IMG/VR virus record: IMGVR_UViG_3300037346_000373
Span: 1-27,887 of that record
Direction: 5' to 3' (one strand)
Origin: a virus
Length of the DNA stretch: 27,887 nt
A model generated the notes under the pieces. It was not told where the DNA came from. It made no database searches and saw nothing but the letters and a program-made list of their open reading frames with translations. How positions within the stretch are numbered: the first letter of the stretch is position 1; each line of letters begins with the position of its first letter. Of this stretch, positions 324 to 12,215 are shown one piece after another. The position numbers and the translations under genes were made by a program.

Positions 324-407
324 ATGAAACAAATATCTAGTGTATGGGTAAAATAATAAACTAGATGGCTAATATATAATCTATAGTTAACATCTTAACA
401 TAAAAAA

Positions 408-1565
408 ATGATAGAACAAGAAATTGTAATCCAAGTTGGAGAAAATCCATTTGACACAAAAAAAGTAAAAGTACAGGTACCGCATGGTACTAAAATAATG
501 TGCACAGAACCATACGCGCTAGAAGCTTTAGCCTTATATGGTTTAGGTGGTGACGCAGAAAATAGTATACGTTTATGTGATACTAAACAAACTCATATTG
601 CACAAGGTGAGATTGTATCAATCACAAAAAATAAAGCTGGTGATAAGGAAAGTGCTCTTATTGATATAGGTTCTAAATTTACTGCTTTTTGCTCTTTAGT
701 AAAAGAACATAAAGAAATTGTAGATCAAATACAAATAGGCATGACAATTGATGTTAAGGTTAGAACAGCAGCAAATGGTACAATCATGGCATCAATCTCT
801 GATGCATTAAATGAAGTTAAATTTAATGAAATCCTAAAGGCAATTGGAAACAAATCGGTTGGATTTACTGGTAAAATTACTGAACTTATTAACGGTGGTT
901 ATTGGGTTGAATTAGGTGGAGTTAAATGCTTTATGCCAGGTTCTCTTGCAGGATTAAATAAATTATGGAACTTTGAATCTATAGTAGGTAAAACATTAAT
1001 TGTTATGCCAGTGTCATATTCAAATGAAAAGAATACAATCATAGTTTCACATAGGGAATATCTTAGTACTCTTATACCTAACGCGGTTAATGATCTTAAT
1101 GAAAATATTAAAGATTCAGTTACAGGATTTGTTACAGGTACTACTAAATTTGGTATCTTTGCTGAATTTAATGAATGTTTAACTGGACTAATACCTAATA
1201 CTGAATTAGACGAAGAAACTTTACAAAAGTTTAATAAGAATGAAATTAATCCAGGTGATGAAATTGAATTTTGGGCAAAAGACATTATATCAGATAAGAA
1301 GATCATATTAAGTCAAAAAGGACCTAAGGAAGATATATGGGATGGTATTAATGAAAGATACAAACCAATGATGATTACAACTGGTATTGTTACTAAAATT
1401 ACAAAGTATGGTGCTTTTGTTGAATTAGAAAAAGGCATCAGTGGTCTTATACATAAAACTAAACTTAAAGATGTTTCTTTGGATAAAGGTGATAAAGTAA
1501 ACATTAGAATCCAAGGTGTTAATATATCAGAGAGAAAAATCGCAATGGCGCTGGCTGATAATTAA
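408..1565 (+). CDS. Ribosomal protein S1-like RNA-binding protein with four S1 domains
   Basis: The 385-residue product has four OB-fold S1 repeats, at about residues 66-132, 150-216, 236-304 and 322-383. Domains 3 and 4 are the clearest, with the S1 signature 'G.V...T.FG.F.E' followed by 'GLIP' or 'GLIH', and 'G..V...I' before the last strand (TKYGAFVEL, SGLIHKTKL, KGDKVNIRI). The N-terminal 60 residues are not an S1 domain and might bind the ribosome or a virion partner. Cellular bS1 of Bacteroidota has about six domains, so this is a shortened form. In the family, S1 holds mRNA on the 30S subunit and is most important where no Shine-Dalgarno pairing occurs. The start at 408 has a run of seven A just before it and no SD. 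A role in steering host ribosomes to phage mRNA is inferred; RNA protection, or a scaffold role like that of S1 in Q-beta replicase, is an alternative. Confidence 0.85.
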   Translation: MIEQEIVIQVGENPFDTKKVKVQVPHGTKIMCTEPYALEALALYGLGGDAENSIRLCDTKQTHIAQGEIVSITKNKAGDKESALIDIGSKFTAFCSLVKEHKEIVDQIQIGMTIDVKVRTAANGTIMASISDALNEVKFNEILKAIGNKSVGFTGKITELINGGYWVELGGVKCFMPGSLAGLNKLWNFESIVGKTLIVMPVSYSNEKNTIIVSHREYLSTLIPNAVNDLNENIKDSVTGFVTGTTKFGIFAEFNECLTGLIPNTELDEETLQKFNKNEINPGDEIEFWAKDIISDKKIILSQKGPKEDIWDGINERYKPMMITTGIVTKITKYGAFVELEKGISGLIHKTKLKDVSLDKGDKVNIRIQGVNISERKIAMALADN

Positions 1566-1597: not shown

Positions 1598-2899
1598 ATG
1601 TATTCCAATGAACAGCTTAATGCTATACACTTTTCAAAAATAGGATTTGCATTTGAATTTTTTGTTAAGGAAGAAATTAATTTAGCAAAAGAAAATATTG
1701 CTAATATATTAAACAAAAAGATTCGAGTTGAAGAAAAAATACACAGTGTTTTTTTACCAACATCAAGTGTGTTTAAAATAGAACATGATAATTCAGGGGA
1801 ACTTGGTATGATTAATCTCATAACAGGTTCCCTTCCTTTTGTTGAGGCTAAAATGGTTTTATCTAAAATGTTAAAATGGATTAAAGAAAACGGTTCTACT
1901 AATGATAGATGTACAATTCTGGTAAATGTTTCATTTGATAATAAAAAATTAGGTCCTAATGTAAACGTTTCAAAACTAGACATTGGTAAATTTGTTCTTA
2001 ATTTTAATGAAGACAAAGTATATGAATCTTTTCCTGATAGAAAAGATTCAGTTTATGCAAAGTCAATAAAATTTATACTACCCTTAGGAGGCATGACCCA
2101 GCAATCACCAAATAAGAATATATGGAAAAACTATATGTTTGTTAATGAAAATTACTATGGTGCTAACTTTACTAAGATATCTGATGGTTACGTTAAATTT
2201 AGATATTTAGGTGGAGCTAATTATGAAAAAAAATATTCTACTATATTAGAAATGATAGAACATTTTATTACATCATTATATGAAACATTAGATAACCCAA
2301 TATATTCAAAAGAAGATCTTGCTAAATTAAACGAAGTTTTAAATAAGCACAGAGATGTTTTACAAGCATATAAGACATATGAAAAGTTTAATAAGAAATT
2401 TCCAGAAATTTCCATAATGATCGATCTTAAAACAGCAAAACAAACAGTTGAAATGTACTATCCTAAGATAAGAGAACGTGTTTTTGATTTATTAACTAAA
2501 GCTGATATGAAATCAGGTTTAATTAACTATGATAGTGATTCAGGTAGAATACAAATTAAAGATGCTGATTTAAAAAGATGTTTTGAAATTTCAGGATTTG
2601 ATATTTTTCAATGTACAGTAAAAGGTAATATTAAAAATTGTGATATTTTTGATTCTGAAATCAATGATGCATTTGTTTTTGAGTCTAACTTATTTGGTGG
2701 TACTACTTGCAAAGATTGTAAGATTGAAAATTCATATATAAGTAGAAATGTAAATGTTGATAACTCATTTATATTTGGAAAGAAAGGCGTTTTTAGTGGT
2801 GACATGAGAGGTGGTGTTTTTAGAGAAGGTAGAGCAACCAAATTTGCAAACATTGCAAACAGTACTAAAGTTGTCGAAATAGAAAAAATTAAATTATAA
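1598..2899 (+). CDS. Degenerate amidoligase-fold protein with C-terminal beta-helix-like region
   Basis: The first 230 of 433 residues follow the layout of the putative amidoligase family (ATP-grasp-related COOH-NH2 ligases): an opening FAFEFF (17-22), a D.S turn near 64-66, a 'LITGSLPF.EA' segment (74-84), a 'C...VNVSF' strand (105-113) and an 'FRYLGG..YEKK' strand (201-212). Key residues look lost. The usual first Glu/Asp of the opening strand is Ala18, the Glu before 'LIT' is Asn73, and the His of the 'H.N.S' strand is Val109. This suggests a fold kept for structure rather than catalysis. Residues about 325-425 alternate short hydrophobic and polar strands (CDIFDSEI, NSFIFGKKGVF) in a way that suggests a solenoid or beta-helix. 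It lies between the S1-like gene and a probable neck/tail gene, with a 1-base gap to the next. I infer a virion role. The amidoligase relation is from motif memory, not a search. Confidence 0.7.
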   Translation: MYSNEQLNAIHFSKIGFAFEFFVKEEINLAKENIANILNKKIRVEEKIHSVFLPTSSVFKIEHDNSGELGMINLITGSLPFVEAKMVLSKMLKWIKENGSTNDRCTILVNVSFDNKKLGPNVNVSKLDIGKFVLNFNEDKVYESFPDRKDSVYAKSIKFILPLGGMTQQSPNKNIWKNYMFVNENYYGANFTKISDGYVKFRYLGGANYEKKYSTILEMIEHFITSLYETLDNPIYSKEDLAKLNEVLNKHRDVLQAYKTYEKFNKKFPEISIMIDLKTAKQTVEMYYPKIRERVFDLLTKADMKSGLINYDSDSGRIQIKDADLKRCFEISGFDIFQCTVKGNIKNCDIFDSEINDAFVFESNLFGGTTCKDCKIENSYISRNVNVDNSFIFGKKGVFSGDMRGGVFREGRATKFANIANSTKVVEIEKIKL

Positions 2900-2900
2900 T

Positions 2901-3743
2901 ATGGCATATGTTGATTGTAATAGCCCAGAATCACTAGCATGTTTAGATACATTAATTAAAGAGATTAATGATGAGTTAACTGTTGGTTGTCAGCTTCCGT
3001 TTACGGTTCCTAAAAAAGAATTGGCTAGAATTATCCAGAGATCCAAGGAGTATTTTTACAAAATATACGAGGACAGTGTTGAAGAAATGTATATTGCCCT
3101 TCCTGCTTCTGCGTGGAATAAGACTAGCTTTAAAAAAGGTATACTTGATGAAAATGAAGTATTATCAAAAACCAATGTAAATAGTACCAGAGGTATTGTA
3201 CCAATGCCATCTACTGTTTATTCTGTAAATAATGTATTTGAGGTGAATGGGTTCAGTGGTGAAGATGGCGGTTTTGGTACTAATTCATTTTCTGCTGGTG
3301 ATGTTGACTTCTCTATTGAAAAATTTATTTACTCTGATTCATACGGCGCGGGATTAGGTTCTGAAAACTTAATGGCTTATGTTATTAATTCAAGTTTCGT
3401 AGACATGACAAGACAGATATTACTTTCACAAATATCATATTCTTATAACCGTTTGACTAAAAAGTTTAGATTCCAAGGTGAACTTCCAAAAAGTGCATGT
3501 ATATTTCAGGTTTATAATACCATTCCTGACTGTGCATTATTTCAAGATGAAACCTTTATTAGATATTGTATTGCAAAAGCAAAAGTACAATTAGCAAGAA
3601 TCTTAGGTACATTTTCTTTTAATCTTCCAGGTAACATTACAATCAATTATGATATGATTGCATCTGAAGGTAAGGATGAATTAACAGCAATCGTTGAGGA
3701 AATTAAAGGAGATGAAGGCGTTGACTATTTTTATACAGGGTGA
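2901..3743 (+). CDS. Probable virion structural protein (neck/tail or baseplate), 280 aa
   Basis: A 280-residue acidic protein that starts one base after the preceding stop, so the two are probably translated together. The N-terminal quarter is helical and Cys-containing. The middle (about 95-175) is Gly/Ser-rich and probably beta. The C-terminal part (about 215-280) has a long amphipathic helix 'FIRYCIAKAKVQLARILGTF', then 'LPGNITINYDMIASEGKDEL' and an acidic helix. This 'A.AK..L.RI......P...I..D...EG..E' pattern is one I associate with structural proteins beside phage baseplate genes, but I cannot name the family. The poly-T stretch just after the stop (about 3744-3751) could help transcript termination, though no GC-rich stem precedes it. 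Confidence 0.6.
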   Translation: MAYVDCNSPESLACLDTLIKEINDELTVGCQLPFTVPKKELARIIQRSKEYFYKIYEDSVEEMYIALPASAWNKTSFKKGILDENEVLSKTNVNSTRGIVPMPSTVYSVNNVFEVNGFSGEDGGFGTNSFSAGDVDFSIEKFIYSDSYGAGLGSENLMAYVINSSFVDMTRQILLSQISYSYNRLTKKFRFQGELPKSACIFQVYNTIPDCALFQDETFIRYCIAKAKVQLARILGTFSFNLPGNITINYDMIASEGKDELTAIVEEIKGDEGVDYFYTG

Positions 3744-3781: not shown

Positions 3782-3810
3782 AGAGAATATATATTAAAAC
3801 AATATTCTCT
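3782..3810 (+). repeat. Perfect 9-bp inverted repeat abutting the gp25-like start codon
   Basis: AGAGAATAT (3782-3790) and ATATTCTCT (3802-3810) are exact reverse complements separated by 11 bases. The right arm ends on the base before the ATG at 3811. In RNA this would form a hairpin that presses against the initiation site. No U-tract follows, so it does not look like an intrinsic terminator. It could be a translational operator, an RNA-processing site or a DNA operator. Confidence 0.5.
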
Positions 3811-4176
3811 ATGTTAATTGATATTTATAGCAGAGGAGCAGAAGAAAATAAATTTGCGCCTAATATAATAGAAGTTACAGATTCACTTTCACAGTTGATC
3901 TTAAAGATTGAGAACGCTCTATTTACAAGGAAAGGTGATGTTCTTGGTGTACCTGATTTTGGGTGTAATTTAGATGACCTTATCTTTTCATTAGTACTTA
4001 ATGAATCAGTAATTCAGCAAAAAATTAATAGTCAAATCCAAGCATATTGTTTACTCAATAGTGATGCTAGATTTAACATTGATACTCGTGTATCATTTTT
4101 TGAAACTGCTGGAAGAAATGGTGCTCTCGTTGATATTTATGTCAATGAGACTAGAGTACTTGGAGCCTTATTTTAA
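3811..4176 (+). CDS. Baseplate wedge protein, gp25 / GPW family
   Basis: The product is 121 residues, the usual size for T4 gp25 and phage P2 W. The family hallmark is present: a helix 'SLSQLILKIENALFTRKGDV' (25-44), followed by 'GVPDFGCNLDDLIFS' (46-60), where 'P.FG..L.DL.F' is the most conserved part of GPW_gp25. T4 gp25 bridges the wedge proteins and the central tube/sheath initiation complex, and the same role is expected here. It is followed 20 bases later by the gp6-like gene, the classical partner in the wedge core. The start at 3811 is supported by the family N-terminal length. An inverted repeat sits directly against the start codon and may control its translation. Confidence 0.88.
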   Translation: MLIDIYSRGAEENKFAPNIIEVTDSLSQLILKIENALFTRKGDVLGVPDFGCNLDDLIFSLVLNESVIQQKINSQIQAYCLLNSDARFNIDTRVSFFETAGRNGALVDIYVNETRVLGALF

Positions 4177-4196: not shown

Positions 4197-6053
4197 ATGT
4201 CATTCTTTAGTAAAACAAGATTAAAAGCAAGCCAGCTGTTCTATGATGCATTTGAGTATCTACAGACTACATATGATCAAGCAGCTGAAGTATTTACACC
4301 AGCTTCACCATTTGGTCAATTATTAACTGTTGTTGCGAATTTAGGTGAAATGATTTTTTATTATATTGAATCTGTTGCGACAGAGCTTAATATTTTTAGA
4401 GCGAGAAATATAGAATCAATATATGGTCTTTCTAGATTAACTGGACATGACCCTACTCGTGGTATTTCAGCAAGAGGTATAATTGGTCTTAGGCTTAATA
4501 ATAACGCAGGAAATGCGTTCAGTGGGGATTATGTACAAATATTAAATGGTGCTACACTTGAAATTGGTAATAATAGCCTTTCTTATTTTTTAAGATTTGA
4601 TAGTGATTTTATTAGATTAGAAAAAACAAATAAAAACTGGATTAATGTTGAATTAATACAGGGAGAAATTGATAATCAATCATTTACGGGCGACGGACAA
4701 GCATTACAAAGTTATAACTTAACAACAAAAGAACCTACCGATCAATATATGGTAACTGTTAATATAGACGGACAAATGTGGAAGAAGGTTGATTCTTTAT
4801 ATGATATGGGACCTGGTGAAAAATCGTTTATGTGTAAAACTAGTGTAAATGGAGGATTAAGTATCTTTTTTGGAAACAATCAATTTGGATATCCACCACC
4901 ATTAGGATCACTCATTAGAGTTACTTATGTTAAAACTAGAGGAAATAGCGGTAATATAGGTGGTAAGAATCTTGATATTAAATTTAAAGATCCTGGTACA
5001 GATTTTCTAGGTGAACAGGTTGATCTTAATGAAATAATGTCATTAGATATTGTTAGAAATCCTAATTTTGGTTCTGATAGTGAAGATCCTGCATTTACCA
5101 GACTAATTGCACCATACCAAAGTAATTCATTTGTTTTAGCAAATCCTAACAATTATATTTACTACTTAAGTAAATATGATTTCTTTTCATTTATCAATGC
5201 GTATAATACAAAGGATGACCAATACATTAATGATGATAATATTATATACTTATTTTTAGTTCCTGATATTAATAAAAAAATAACAAGTGACAAAGATTAT
5301 TTTACAGTTGCTCTTGAAGAATTTACTTTAACCGAGGATGAAAAATCACAAGTAATAGAAATACTAAATCAAAGCGGTAGACAAGTGGTTACTGCTGAGG
5401 TTAGAATAGATGATCCTATTGTTAAAAAGTATGTTATAAATATTGTAATTAGATGGATTGAAGGGTATGATAAGGATGCATTAAGCGTTGCGATAAGAAA
5501 GACATTAAATGATTATTTCTTAACAGTTAATAGAAGAGATAGGGTACCTAGATCTGATTTAATTGCTATGATAGAAGATATTGAAGGTATTGACTCGGTT
5601 AACTTATTTTTTCTATCACAAGAAAATGAAGAAGCTATTAGAAATGGCTTTTATTTTGTACCAGTATATGGCATTGATCCAGCGACAGATCAAAAAACAC
5701 TAATTGAAAATAAAAAGATTATATTAGGACTAGATGAAGATCCTCAATTAGGGTTAGATGAATTTGGTGATATTGTAATTGGACCTAATGATATTGTTGT
5801 AATTAGAGGAGGATGGGAAGATCGTAATAAAACATATTATGAAGAAATTCCTGTTACTAATGGTATAGGTTCTCTTAATATTTTCTTTAAGACTATGGTT
5901 GAATCAAATCTATATAATAAAACACAACAGGAAAAATTTAATAATTTAAGACGTAATCGTGGCACTACTATAGCCACGGGTAATAATGCAAGATCTACTA
6001 ATACAGGTAGACTTATTGGTACCAGTACGCAACAGGTTATTAAAAATCAATAA
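4197..6053 (+). CDS. Baseplate wedge protein, gp6 / baseplate-J-like
   Basis: The product is 618 residues, close to the 660 of T4 gp6. The N-terminal helical region (about 1-75) contains 'FTPASPFGQLLTVVANLGEMIFYYIES' features (25-52), followed by 'RNIESIYGLSRLTGHDPTR', typical of gp6-like wedge proteins. The middle is beta-rich (75-260). The C-terminal half includes 'VKKYVINIVIRWIEGYDKDAL' and 'VPRSDLIAMIEDIEGIDSVNLFF', resembling the last domain of baseplate-J proteins. gp6 forms the inter-wedge ring that clamps the tail tube region, so this gene places the phage among contractile-tailed phages. The extreme C-terminus (about 585-618) is low-complexity, rich in Asn, Thr, Arg and Gly, and is probably flexible. 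It follows the gp25-like gene by 20 bases and precedes the transpeptidase-like gene by 8. Confidence 0.85.
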   Translation: MSFFSKTRLKASQLFYDAFEYLQTTYDQAAEVFTPASPFGQLLTVVANLGEMIFYYIESVATELNIFRARNIESIYGLSRLTGHDPTRGISARGIIGLRLNNNAGNAFSGDYVQILNGATLEIGNNSLSYFLRFDSDFIRLEKTNKNWINVELIQGEIDNQSFTGDGQALQSYNLTTKEPTDQYMVTVNIDGQMWKKVDSLYDMGPGEKSFMCKTSVNGGLSIFFGNNQFGYPPPLGSLIRVTYVKTRGNSGNIGGKNLDIKFKDPGTDFLGEQVDLNEIMSLDIVRNPNFGSDSEDPAFTRLIAPYQSNSFVLANPNNYIYYLSKYDFFSFINAYNTKDDQYINDDNIIYLFLVPDINKKITSDKDYFTVALEEFTLTEDEKSQVIEILNQSGRQVVTAEVRIDDPIVKKYVINIVIRWIEGYDKDALSVAIRKTLNDYFLTVNRRDRVPRSDLIAMIEDIEGIDSVNLFFLSQENEEAIRNGFYFVPVYGIDPATDQKTLIENKKIILGLDEDPQLGLDEFGDIVIGPNDIVVIRGGWEDRNKTYYEEIPVTNGIGSLNIFFKTMVESNLYNKTQQEKFNNLRRNRGTTIATGNNARSTNTGRLIGTSTQQVIKNQ

Positions 6054-6061
6054 AACAAAAA

Positions 6062-6655
6062 ATGAGCTGTTATACAAGAGAACAAATCGAAAATGCGGTA
6101 AAAGCAAAAGGCCATGCTTGGTTTGAAGGACAAAAAGACTTTGATGTTAATATAGTAGGGGTTAGAAATTCTGCTACAGAAAATAAAGTTACAAATGTTT
6201 TTGATGACTGTATTACATTATCCTATAAAGAAGGTGGTGTTTGGAAATTCCAGTGCTGGTCAGCAACCACTGATCCTGGTACTAAAGGTGTCAAAGAATA
6301 TCATAATGCTGCTGGTGTTGCTCGTTTGGTTGAAGGTCAATATAGAGGATCTCATACATTAGGTTTACATCAAGGTAAATATGAAGCACTTAAGCAACAA
6401 AAACCAGTTAAGGTTTATCGTGATGCAAATCGTGACGTGACCTATGATGAGACTAAAATTGCAGAAGGTATTTTTGGTATTAATATTCATAAGGCTGGTG
6501 TAGATTCAACATATGTTGAAAATTGGTCTGAAGGTTGTCAGGTATTTAAAAGGTCAGCTGACTTTGAATCATTTATGACTATTATAAGAAAAGCTGCTGC
6601 AATACATGGTAAATCTTTTACATATACCTTAATTGAATCGGCGGACATTAAGTAA
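6062..6655 (+). CDS. L,D-transpeptidase-like (YkuD-like) peptidoglycan enzyme
   Basis: A 197-residue protein carrying 'GINIHKAG' (139-146) and 'WSEGCQVF' (155-162). This H...SxGC arrangement is the active-site signature of the L,D-transpeptidase catalytic fold, with His143 and Cys159 as the likely pair. Upstream, 'VGVRN' (32-36), 'TTDPGTKG' (69-76) and 'LGLHQGKYEAL' (100-110) match a subgroup I recall from Bacteroidota and their phages. There is no signal peptide or transmembrane segment. Its place in the baseplate block suggests either a tail-associated enzyme that opens peptidoglycan during injection, comparable in role to T4 gp5 lysozyme, or an endolysin. Cleavage (L,D-carboxypeptidase or endopeptidase) is more useful to a phage than crosslinking, but the reaction cannot be read from sequence. 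Confidence 0.75.
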   Translation: MSCYTREQIENAVKAKGHAWFEGQKDFDVNIVGVRNSATENKVTNVFDDCITLSYKEGGVWKFQCWSATTDPGTKGVKEYHNAAGVARLVEGQYRGSHTLGLHQGKYEALKQQKPVKVYRDANRDVTYDETKIAEGIFGINIHKAGVDSTYVENWSEGCQVFKRSADFESFMTIIRKAAAIHGKSFTYTLIESADIK

Positions 6656-10292: not shown

Positions 10293-10952
10293 ATGATTGG
10301 AATATATGCAATAACTAATACGATTAACAACAAGGCCTATATTGGCTCTGCTGTTAATGTTGAGCGCAGATGGGCAAAGCATATATTTGGTTTAAATAAA
10401 AACATTCACCTGAATAAAAAATTACAAAATTCTTGGAATAAATATGGAGCTGATTTGTTCAACTTTATTGTGATTGAAGAATTAGAGGACAAGAATAACT
10501 TAGTTGAACGAGAGCAATATTATATGGATAATAGTAAAGTAGAACTTCTAAATATTCGGATTATTGCTAAGTCTAACTTAGGACTGAAGCACTCAAGCAA
10601 AACCAAAGATAGTATGAGGCAAGCTAGGTTAACATATTTCAAGAATAACCCTGATGCAAAAATTGCTATAGGTAAAGTAATGAAAGAAAAACCAAATAAA
10701 CCTTGGTTAGGTAAAACTGGTCCTAATAAGAATAAAAAAATGTCTGATTTACAAAAAAGCAAATTAAGTTATGCTAAAGTAACAAAAGGTATTTTACAAT
10801 ATGATAAAAAAAATAACTTTATAAAGAAATGGAATACCATGACCGATTTGCAAATCGCAGGGTTTCATAACAGTTGTATTCTTAGAGTTTGTAAAGGTGA
10901 AAGAAAAACCCACAAAGGGTTTAAGTGGGCAAAAGAAATTTCGAATAAATAA
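10293..10952 (+). CDS. GIY-YIG homing endonuclease with NUMOD modules
   Basis: A 219-residue free-standing endonuclease. The GIY-YIG nuclease domain spans about 1-92: 'GIY' at 3-5, 'YIG' at 16-18, the catalytic Arg in 'ERRW' (24-27) and a Glu in 'EREQYY' (72-77). Next comes a NUMOD3-like DNA-binding motif (96-112, 'NLGLKHSSKTKDSMRQAR') and a NUMOD1-like helix-turn-helix at the end (about 167-213, 'ILQYDK...FIKKW' to 'KGFKWAKE'). Such enzymes cut a site in genomes that lack the gene, and repair copies the gene in. It is intact, sits between two structural genes with a 9-base gap upstream, and is probably selfish rather than part of the tail. No intron is evident around it. Confidence 0.9.
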   Translation: MIGIYAITNTINNKAYIGSAVNVERRWAKHIFGLNKNIHLNKKLQNSWNKYGADLFNFIVIEELEDKNNLVEREQYYMDNSKVELLNIRIIAKSNLGLKHSSKTKDSMRQARLTYFKNNPDAKIAIGKVMKEKPNKPWLGKTGPNKNKKMSDLQKSKLSYAKVTKGILQYDKKNNFIKKWNTMTDLQIAGFHNSCILRVCKGERKTHKGFKWAKEISNK

Positions 10953-11643: not shown

Positions 11644-11657
11644 TAAAAAGAAAACAG

Positions 11658-12215
11658 ATGAAAAAGAATTACTATACATATTGTATAATAAACTTAGTGA
11701 ACGATAAAAAATATATAGGTTCAAGAGAAACTATATTAAATCCTAGTGATGATTTAGGTAAACTTTATTTTTCAAGTTCATCAGATAAAGAATTTATAAT
11801 TGACCAAAAAGAAAAGCCAAGTAATTATAAATATGATATTTTTAAAACCTTTACATCGCGAGAAGACGCTGATATACATGAATCTAATTTACATAATGAA
11901 TATGAAGTAGATAAAAATCCAATATTCTATAATAGATCAAGACAAACAATAAATAAATTCCGATATGATCCTACTGGTACAAAATTATCGAGGGAAACTA
12001 AAGCAAAAATATCTGAATCATTAAAAGGGCGACTTGTTTCAAAAGAAACTAGACAAAAATTAAGAAATGCGAATTTAGGGAAGAAATTAACCGGAACTTG
12101 TAAACTTAAACTATCAGTAGCTCATATAGGAATGCTTCATTCAGAAGAGACAAAAAAGAAGATGTCAACATCTAGAAAAAACGTATCGGTAACTTTGCAC
12201 CTTCATTTGGAATGA
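11658..12215 (+). CDS. GIY-YIG-type homing endonuclease, frameshifted and missing its zinc finger in frame 0
   Basis: The start at 11658 is preferred over an in-frame ATG at 11604, which would overlap the upstream gene; from 11658 the protein opens directly with the nuclease domain. Residues 4-22 ('YYTYCIINLVNDKKYIGS') are a variant GIY-YIG pair. 'HESNLHNEYEVDKNP' (74-88) carries the likely catalytic Glu, and NUMOD3-like repeats ('S.ET..K.S.SLKG', 'S.ETRQKLRNANLGKK', 'SEETKKKMS') follow at about 111-170. After residue 174 the frame 0 tail is only NVSVTLHLHLE. Shifting by -1 at the A6 run 12176-12181 restores 45 residues with a zinc finger. Frame 0 gives 185 residues; the shifted fusion gives 220, close to the 219 of the neighbouring endonuclease. 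It could be a decaying gene, a programmed -1 frameshift or a sequencing indel. Confidence 0.8.
   Translation: MKKNYYTYCIINLVNDKKYIGSRETILNPSDDLGKLYFSSSSDKEFIIDQKEKPSNYKYDIFKTFTSREDADIHESNLHNEYEVDKNPIFYNRSRQTINKFRYDPTGTKLSRETKAKISESLKGRLVSKETRQKLRNANLGKKLTGTCKLKLSVAHIGMLHSEETKKKMSTSRKNVSVTLHLHLE
12176..12182 (+). other. Putative -1 frameshift heptamer A AAA AAC
   Basis: In the frame of the endonuclease the heptamer reads as the third base of AGA, then AAA, then AAC. This is the X XXY YYZ phase needed for a simultaneous -1 slip. The codon read next after slippage is CGT at 12182, which leads into the zinc-finger frame. I see no clear stimulatory hairpin just downstream, and A AAA AAC is weaker than A AAA AAG in E. 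coli. Confidence 0.45.

What the first reader, a model, noticed from the sequence alone, without database searches (positions are those of the whole stretch)
408..1565. Phage-encoded S1-like protein with four S1 domains beside the baseplate genes
Four S1 repeats are visible in a stand-alone phage protein. Ribosomal protein genes including bS1 and bS21 are known from some viral genomes, but an S1 homologue placed in a late structural block, in a phage whose genes lack Shine-Dalgarno sites, suggests a way to bias host ribosomes toward phage mRNA at the late stage. The non-S1 N-terminal 60 residues could be a ribosome or virion tether.
Basis: partly seen in the sequence, partly recalled or inferred. 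Interest (0 to 1): 0.75.

Follow-up and report, generated by a model that had tools for sequence, protein, structure and literature searches.

The report
Huge-phage four-domain ribosomal protein S1 homologue
A large phage of Bacteroidota carries, inside its tail-baseplate genes, a shortened and diverged copy of the bacterial ribosomal protein S1 that probably docks on host ribosomes; such phage S1-like genes have been reported since 2020, so this is a well-preserved new member of a known kind.

Summary
ORF 408-1565 (385 aa) has four S1/OB domains. It is more than generic S1 repeats: it is collinear with domains 1-4 of ribosomal bS1. Domains 1 and 2, the bS1-specific ones, match bS1 D1 and D2 best. 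The Lys that E. coli bS1 inserts into the uS2 zinc pocket is invariant in 35/35 relatives, and the model's best PDB matches are 30S-bound bS1. At least 590 IMG/VR stretches encode relatives; only three turned up in 84,980 bacterial/archaeal genomes. The gene is under purifying selection (dN/dS 0.06-0.12) and sits inside the baseplate block in 79 of 80 fetched contigs. The idea of rpS1-like proteins in huge phages lacking SD sites was published in 2020 (PMC7162821), and late-stage ribosome bias for phage bS21 in 2022. The 60 non-S1 residues split into a conserved beta-hairpin (1-33), with no relative found outside this lineage, and a helical stretch (34-58) overlying bS1's own uS2-binding N-terminus. 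Function on the ribosome is inferred, not shown.

The parts
408..1565 (+). S1-like protein, 385 aa, four S1/OB domains collinear with bS1 D1-D4
408..506 (+). codons 1-33: conserved N-terminal beta-hairpin, absent from E. coli bS1 and from the larger Mahaphages/Lak; present in LR756500
   Evidence: 3.5 bits mean conservation over 35 sequences, higher than D1; strands 2-9 and 17-24 in model, pLDDT about 55-70; VIA alignment of model to bS1 starts at 33-36; profile finds it in no other ORF of the clade loci
507..581 (+). codons 34-58: helical segment overlying the uS2-binding N-terminus of bS1 (invariant Y36)
591..809 (+). domain 1 (residues 62-134), bS1 D1-like, invariant K90 aligned with E. coli K43 (uS2 zinc pocket)
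   Evidence: PMC10123108
852..1064 (+). domain 2 (residues 149-219), bS1 D2-specific signature GGYWVELGGVKCFMPGSLAGLNKL
   Evidence: 42.2 bits to E. coli D2, next best non-D2 domain 12.7
1101..1319 (+). domain 3 (residues 232-304), S1 repeat with invariant F248 and F251
1359..1556 (+). domain 4 (residues 318-383), best match bS1 D4, invariant Y334/F337/H349
   Evidence: 53.5 bits to E. coli D4
371..386 (+). AATATATAATCTATAG, promoter-like element; its core 12-mer TATATAATCTAT is exact in 61 of 80 relatives, 31-39 nt before the start codon in all with a match
1598..2899 (+). conserved neighbour of unknown function, next in line or after one inserted gene
2901..3743 (+). head-tail adaptor Ad2-like
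   Evidence: phrog_211 E=9.7e-12
3811..4176 (+). gp25-like baseplate wedge
   Evidence: phrog_43 E=9.3e-5; PF04965 E=0.0016, below its cut-off
4197..6053 (+). baseplate wedge (J/gp6-like); relatives in Tenacibaculum, Flavobacterium, Chryseobacterium and Prevotella phages
   Evidence: phrog_219 E=3.1e-25

Best explanation
The gene encodes a four-domain, strongly diverged bS1 homologue of a huge Bacteroidota-infecting myophage lineage. Shown: bS1 domain order D1-D4, bS1-specific D1-D2, conserved anchor Lys and RNA-facing aromatics, purifying selection, fixed place in the baseplate block behind the same kind of promoter-like element as its neighbours. Inferred: D1 with residues 34-58 docks on uS2 of host 30S subunits in place of (or beside) host bS1; D2-D4 hold the A-rich leader, whose A peak at -13 is where D4 of bS1 is placed in published models; the net effect is to favour or unfold phage mRNA during structural protein synthesis. 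The 1-33 hairpin would be a clade-specific contact (ribosome, RNA polymerase or another phage factor).
For: Sequence: phmmer to E. coli bS1 E=3.6e-34 over residues 51-353; domain-by-domain profile matrix gives D1 to D1, D2 to D2, D4 to D4. Structure: AF2 model built without bS1 in the alignment; top Foldseek hits are bS1 of the 30S mRNA delivery complexes (9gut_B E=5.4e-23), VIA Z 14.5 with model 34-385 on bS1 1-350. Residues: K90 35/35 at the position of E. coli K43, Y165 and F175 35/35 at F120/F130 of the OB2 mRNA pocket (roles from PMC10123108). Selection: dN/dS 0.06-0.12. Family: at least 590 phage relatives, 3 in 84,980 cell genomes. Leader: A at -13 in 68% of 764 starts against 38% background, SD core 4 against 15.5 expected; D4 positioned at -12 to -15 (PMC6847099). 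Context: baseplate block in 79/80 contigs.
Against: No experimental data. Bacteroidota jumbo phages without S1 domains have the same leaders and no SD, so the protein is not needed for this mode of initiation. The phenylalanine pair of the bS1 N-terminal helix is not recognisable by sequence; E. coli F79 is not conserved. Domains 5-6, part of the RNA-binding half in E. coli, are missing; Lak homologues also lack the anchor Lys and have no aligned fourth domain. The N-terminus is the least confident part of the model (pTM 0.54 overall).
Confidence: 0.52

Rival explanations
1. Off-ribosome RNA chaperone or mRNA-protecting / transcription-coupling factor: it coats A/U-rich phage transcripts or links phage transcripts to RNA polymerase, without replacing bS1 in 30S.
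For: Generic S1 RNA-binding aromatics are retained in D3-D4; the N-terminal hairpin is unrelated to bS1; PMC7162821 itself leaves 'on or off the ribosome' open; host bS1 has known extraribosomal roles.
Against: D1-D2, which in bS1 mainly serve ribosome binding, are retained and D2 is the most conserved region; the uS2-pocket Lys is invariant.
Confidence: 0.27
2. Virion or baseplate-associated protein (packaged, assembly chaperone, or injected at infection): its place between hub and wedge genes reflects a structural role.
For: 79/80 contigs keep it inside the baseplate block; upstream hub/lysozyme gene; conserved N-terminal hairpin as possible tether.
Against: In Lak phages, which also carry it, the gene lies with replication/tRNA genes; jumbo phages with homologous baseplate wedge genes lack it altogether; the hairpin is found in no other protein of the block.
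Confidence: 0.12
3. Competitive inhibitor of host translation: it displaces host bS1 through D1-D2 but, lacking D5-D6, serves host mRNAs poorly, giving host shut-off rather than active phage preference.
For: Four instead of six domains with the anchor half retained; viral bS21 incorporated into E. coli ribosomes cut translation to about 5% (PMC6375957).
Against: Phage and Bacteroidota leaders have the same A-rich pattern, so inhibition would hit phage mRNA too unless D2-D4 discriminate.
Confidence: 0.07
4. A generic multi-S1 protein unrelated to ribosomal bS1 (RNase R/PNPase/Rrp5-like repeat).
For: S1 domains are ubiquitous; PMC7162821 notes the difficulty of confirming true rpS1.
Against: Collinearity D1-D4 and D2 specificity, top structural matches are bS1, no catalytic domain.
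Confidence: 0.02

Closest known systems
rpS1-like proteins of huge phages (Al-Shayeb et al. 2020, PMC7162821)
   Same: Same family: the window protein is 43% identical to a homologue in LR756500 (462 kb) and aligns with those of the 634-735 kb records and Lak phages; that paper already proposed ribosome hijacking and the link to missing SD.
   Different: This clade (window, LR756500) adds a 33-residue N-terminal hairpin and has the gene in the baseplate block; the larger Mahaphages and Lak lack a recognisable hairpin and have the gene elsewhere.
Bacterial ribosomal protein bS1 (E. coli; Bacteroidota 9zcd_A)
   Same: Domain order D1-D4, D1/D2 identity, anchor Lys, OB2 aromatic pair, N-terminal helical segment in the model.
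   Different: Lacks D5-D6, low sequence identity, no recognisable F5/F9 pair, extra hairpin.
Phage bS21 of Bacteroidota phages (Chen et al. 2022, PMC9723584)
   Same: Phage-borne 30S initiation protein placed among structural genes and proposed to bias ribosomes late.
   Different: Different protein; bS21 was found in four of the huge phages here but not in LR756500 or Lak-A1; late expression was supported there by metatranscriptomes, not here.
S1 motif protein of Virus NIOZ-UU157 (A0A7S9STL2)
   Same: 59% identity in the fold search, 380 aa: a deposited member of the same clade.
   Different: Annotated only as S1 motif protein.

Membership tests
Ribosomal protein bS1 | Several tandem S1/OB domains in one chain | tested here: met
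Ribosomal protein bS1 | bS1-type D1 and D2 at the N-terminal side, in order, followed by RNA-binding repeats | tested here: met
   domain-by-domain profile matrix
Ribosomal protein bS1 | Lys in D1 loop that enters the uS2 zinc pocket | tested here: met
   K90, 35/35; absent in Lak homologues
Ribosomal protein bS1 | N-terminal helix with aromatic residues stacking on uS2 | tested here: inconclusive
   model segment 34-58 overlies the start of bS1 and Y36 is invariant, but no sequence match
Ribosomal protein bS1 (six-domain type of E. coli) | Six domains; not counted as defining for bS1 at large because bS1-like proteins of Gram-positives have fewer (PMC10123108) | tested here: not met
   four domains
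Ribosomal protein bS1 | Binds 30S and takes part in initiation | not testable with these tools
   needs biochemistry
Huge-phage rpS1-like proteins (PMC7162821) | S1-domain protein in a huge-phage lineage, homologous to those reported | tested here: met
   tblastn and alignment to LR756500, LR756501, LR756502, LR756504, LR745206, Lak
Huge-phage rpS1-like proteins (PMC7162821) | Carrier phage rarely has identifiable SD sites | tested here: met
   but also true of relatives without S1

The most novel reading that the evidence does not exclude
The hairpin-carrying phage S1 makes a phage-specialised ribosome: it replaces host bS1 through uS2 and uses the clade-specific N-terminal hairpin to recruit a phage factor or phage-transcribing RNA polymerase, so that structural-gene transcripts are handed directly to modified 30S subunits.
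Probability: 0.12. Interest if true: 0.8.

Novelty: new member of a known kind. Interest (0 to 1): 0.42.

Why it matters
If the protein docks on 30S, it is a natural four-domain bS1 variant under heavy selection in the one phylum where initiation works without SD pairing; comparing it with host bS1 would test directly whether bS1 reads the A-rich leader, an open question in Bacteroidota translation.

Tried and rejected
Generic S1 protein (rejected: domain matrix). Missing SD as evidence for S1 action (rejected: S1-less relatives pT24, PTm1, MaF61 and MA9V-1 look the same; PAU also lacks S1 but shows no -13 A peak). N-terminal hairpin in PDB by sequence: only a chance hit at E=0.12; hairpin in other phage ORFs of the loci: none. 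The profile search with A2 in the five S1-less phages had no positive control in that call, so the absence rests on the Pfam S1 search with its 14 control genomes. A phylogeny of the phage S1 against cellular bS1 was not attempted: divergence is deep and only one Bacteroidota bS1 (read from the PDB alignment, found with a remembered Bacteroides-like sequence used only as bait) was at hand, so the donor phylum is open. PHROGs has no useful family for it. The cellular hit L094 (Erysipelotrichaceae MAG) also carries gp25- and J-like phage genes beside S1 and is taken as a phage contig in a bin.

Full report
What is there. The window is a 27,887-base virus record. ORF 408-1565 on the + strand codes for 385 aa. 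Pfam S1 scores E=2.3e-23 with three stretches. phmmer against the PDB ranks E. coli bS1 first at E=3.6e-34, aligned over residues 51-353 to bS1 7-306.

Is it bS1 or just S1 repeats? I built profiles of each domain from 35 phage homologues (A2) and scored them against each domain of E. coli bS1 and of a Bacteroidota bS1 chain (9zcd_A, its sequence read). D1 matches Bacteroidota D1 best (16.8 bits, next 5.5), D2 matches E. coli and Bacteroidota D2 (42.2 and 34.3, next 12.7), D4 matches D4 best (53.5 and 44.5); D3 fits D4/D5 best. D1-D2 are the bS1-specific, ribosome-side domains, so this is a bS1 homologue that ends after D4. The AlphaFold2 model (mean pLDDT 78.8, pTM 0.54, no bS1 in the alignment) has four OB barrels; its top Foldseek matches are bS1 chains of the 30S mRNA delivery complexes (9gut_B, E=5.4e-23) and VIA-align gives Z 14.5 with model residues 34-385 on bS1 1-350.

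Residues. In E. coli, bS1 anchors to uS2 by F5/F9 stacking and by K43 in a zinc pocket, and OB2 holds mRNA with F120, F130 and K117 (PMC10123108). The phage K90 aligns with K43 and is present in 35/35; Y165 and F175 (35/35) align with F120 and F130; K117 is His in 32/35 and Asn in 3. The F5/F9 pair is not recognisable by sequence, but residues 34-58, with invariant Y36, overlie that segment in the model.

Distribution. tblastn in phage records finds the family in six uncultured huge-phage records (462-735 kb; LR756501 and LR756503 look like one genome) and in 15 Lak records. dN/dS is 0.06-0.12.

Context. In 79 of 80 fetched contigs S1 is followed by the homologue of 1598-2899, then the adaptor, gp25 and J-like wedge genes, all on one strand; the 80th ends just after S1. 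Many of the 80 are near-duplicates: 53 distinct 70-nt upstream sequences. In L014 the second gene upstream is a baseplate hub/tail lysozyme. Upstream of S1 lies TATATAATCTAT, exact in 61 of 80 relatives and 31-39 nt before the start in those with a match; related AATATATAA elements precede the next gene and gp25. This fits expression together with the baseplate genes, which is inference: no transcript data were available. The placement is not a family rule: in Lak-A1 the neighbours are a tRNA-His guanylyltransferase and a DnaB helicase.

Initiation signals. SD cores are absent from the 19 window genes and depleted in the clade (4 of 764 starts, 15.5 expected by shuffling), with A at -13 in 68% against 38% background. 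In F. johnsoniae A at -12/-13 favours initiation and D4 of bS1 is placed at -12 to -15 (PMC6847099), so a D1-D4 protein has what is needed to reach that site. But Tenacibaculum pT24 and PTm1, Flavobacterium MaF61 and Chryseobacterium MA9V-1, which share the wedge protein and have no S1 domain at all (with 14 positive controls), show the same leaders. Missing SD sites therefore come with the Bacteroidota host and are no evidence for an S1-based bias. This also bears on the published correlation in PMC7162821.

Known or new. PMC7162821 reported S1 (up to six domains) and S21 in huge phages, noted rare SD sites in rpS1 carriers, and proposed a role in initiation on or off the ribosome. PMC9723584 proposed late-stage ribosome bias for phage bS21, and PMC13157829 reports bS1 in a jumbo cyanophage. 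The finding is a new member of a known kind. What I add: the bS1 D1-D4 assignment, the invariant anchor Lys, the conserved hairpin, the fixed baseplate placement with promoter-like element, and the negative test on the SD argument.

Mechanism. Best supported (0.52): docking on 30S via D1 and residues 34-58, with D2-D4 holding A-rich leaders. Rivals: off-ribosome RNA factor (0.27), virion or assembly role (0.12), shut-off by displacing host bS1 (0.07), generic S1 protein (0.02).

Noticed in passing
window 3782-3810: A perfect 9-bp inverted repeat (AGAGAATAT / ATATTCTCT, 11-nt loop) abuts the ATG of the gp25-like gene; AGAGAATATATA occurs in 39 of 47 distinct upstream regions of that gene in relatives.
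   Followed up: partly
window 10293-10952 and 11652-12215: Two GIY-YIG / NUMOD3 type homing-endonuclease-like genes sit between tail genes.
   Followed up: no
window 6062-6655: A 197-aa gene between the J-like and 6677-6946 genes gave no hit in any related locus checked; no family.
   Followed up: no
L112 46-1719 and L114 1492-3147: Other S1-domain proteins in LR756504 and LR745206 look like RNase R-type exoribonucleases with a C-terminal S1 domain (judged from the sequence).
   Followed up: partly
L103-L106: bS21 genes occur in LR756504, LR756501, LR745206 and LR756502, but not in LR756500 or Lak-A1.
   Followed up: no
L094 3001-4137: An Erysipelotrichaceae MAG contig carries this phage S1 (51%) with gp25- and J-like genes on the opposite strand: a phage contig in a bin with a rearranged block.
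   Followed up: partly
L007 19569-22102: Lak S1 homologue lies two genes upstream of a tRNA-His guanylyltransferase, followed by a DnaB-like helicase.
   Followed up: no
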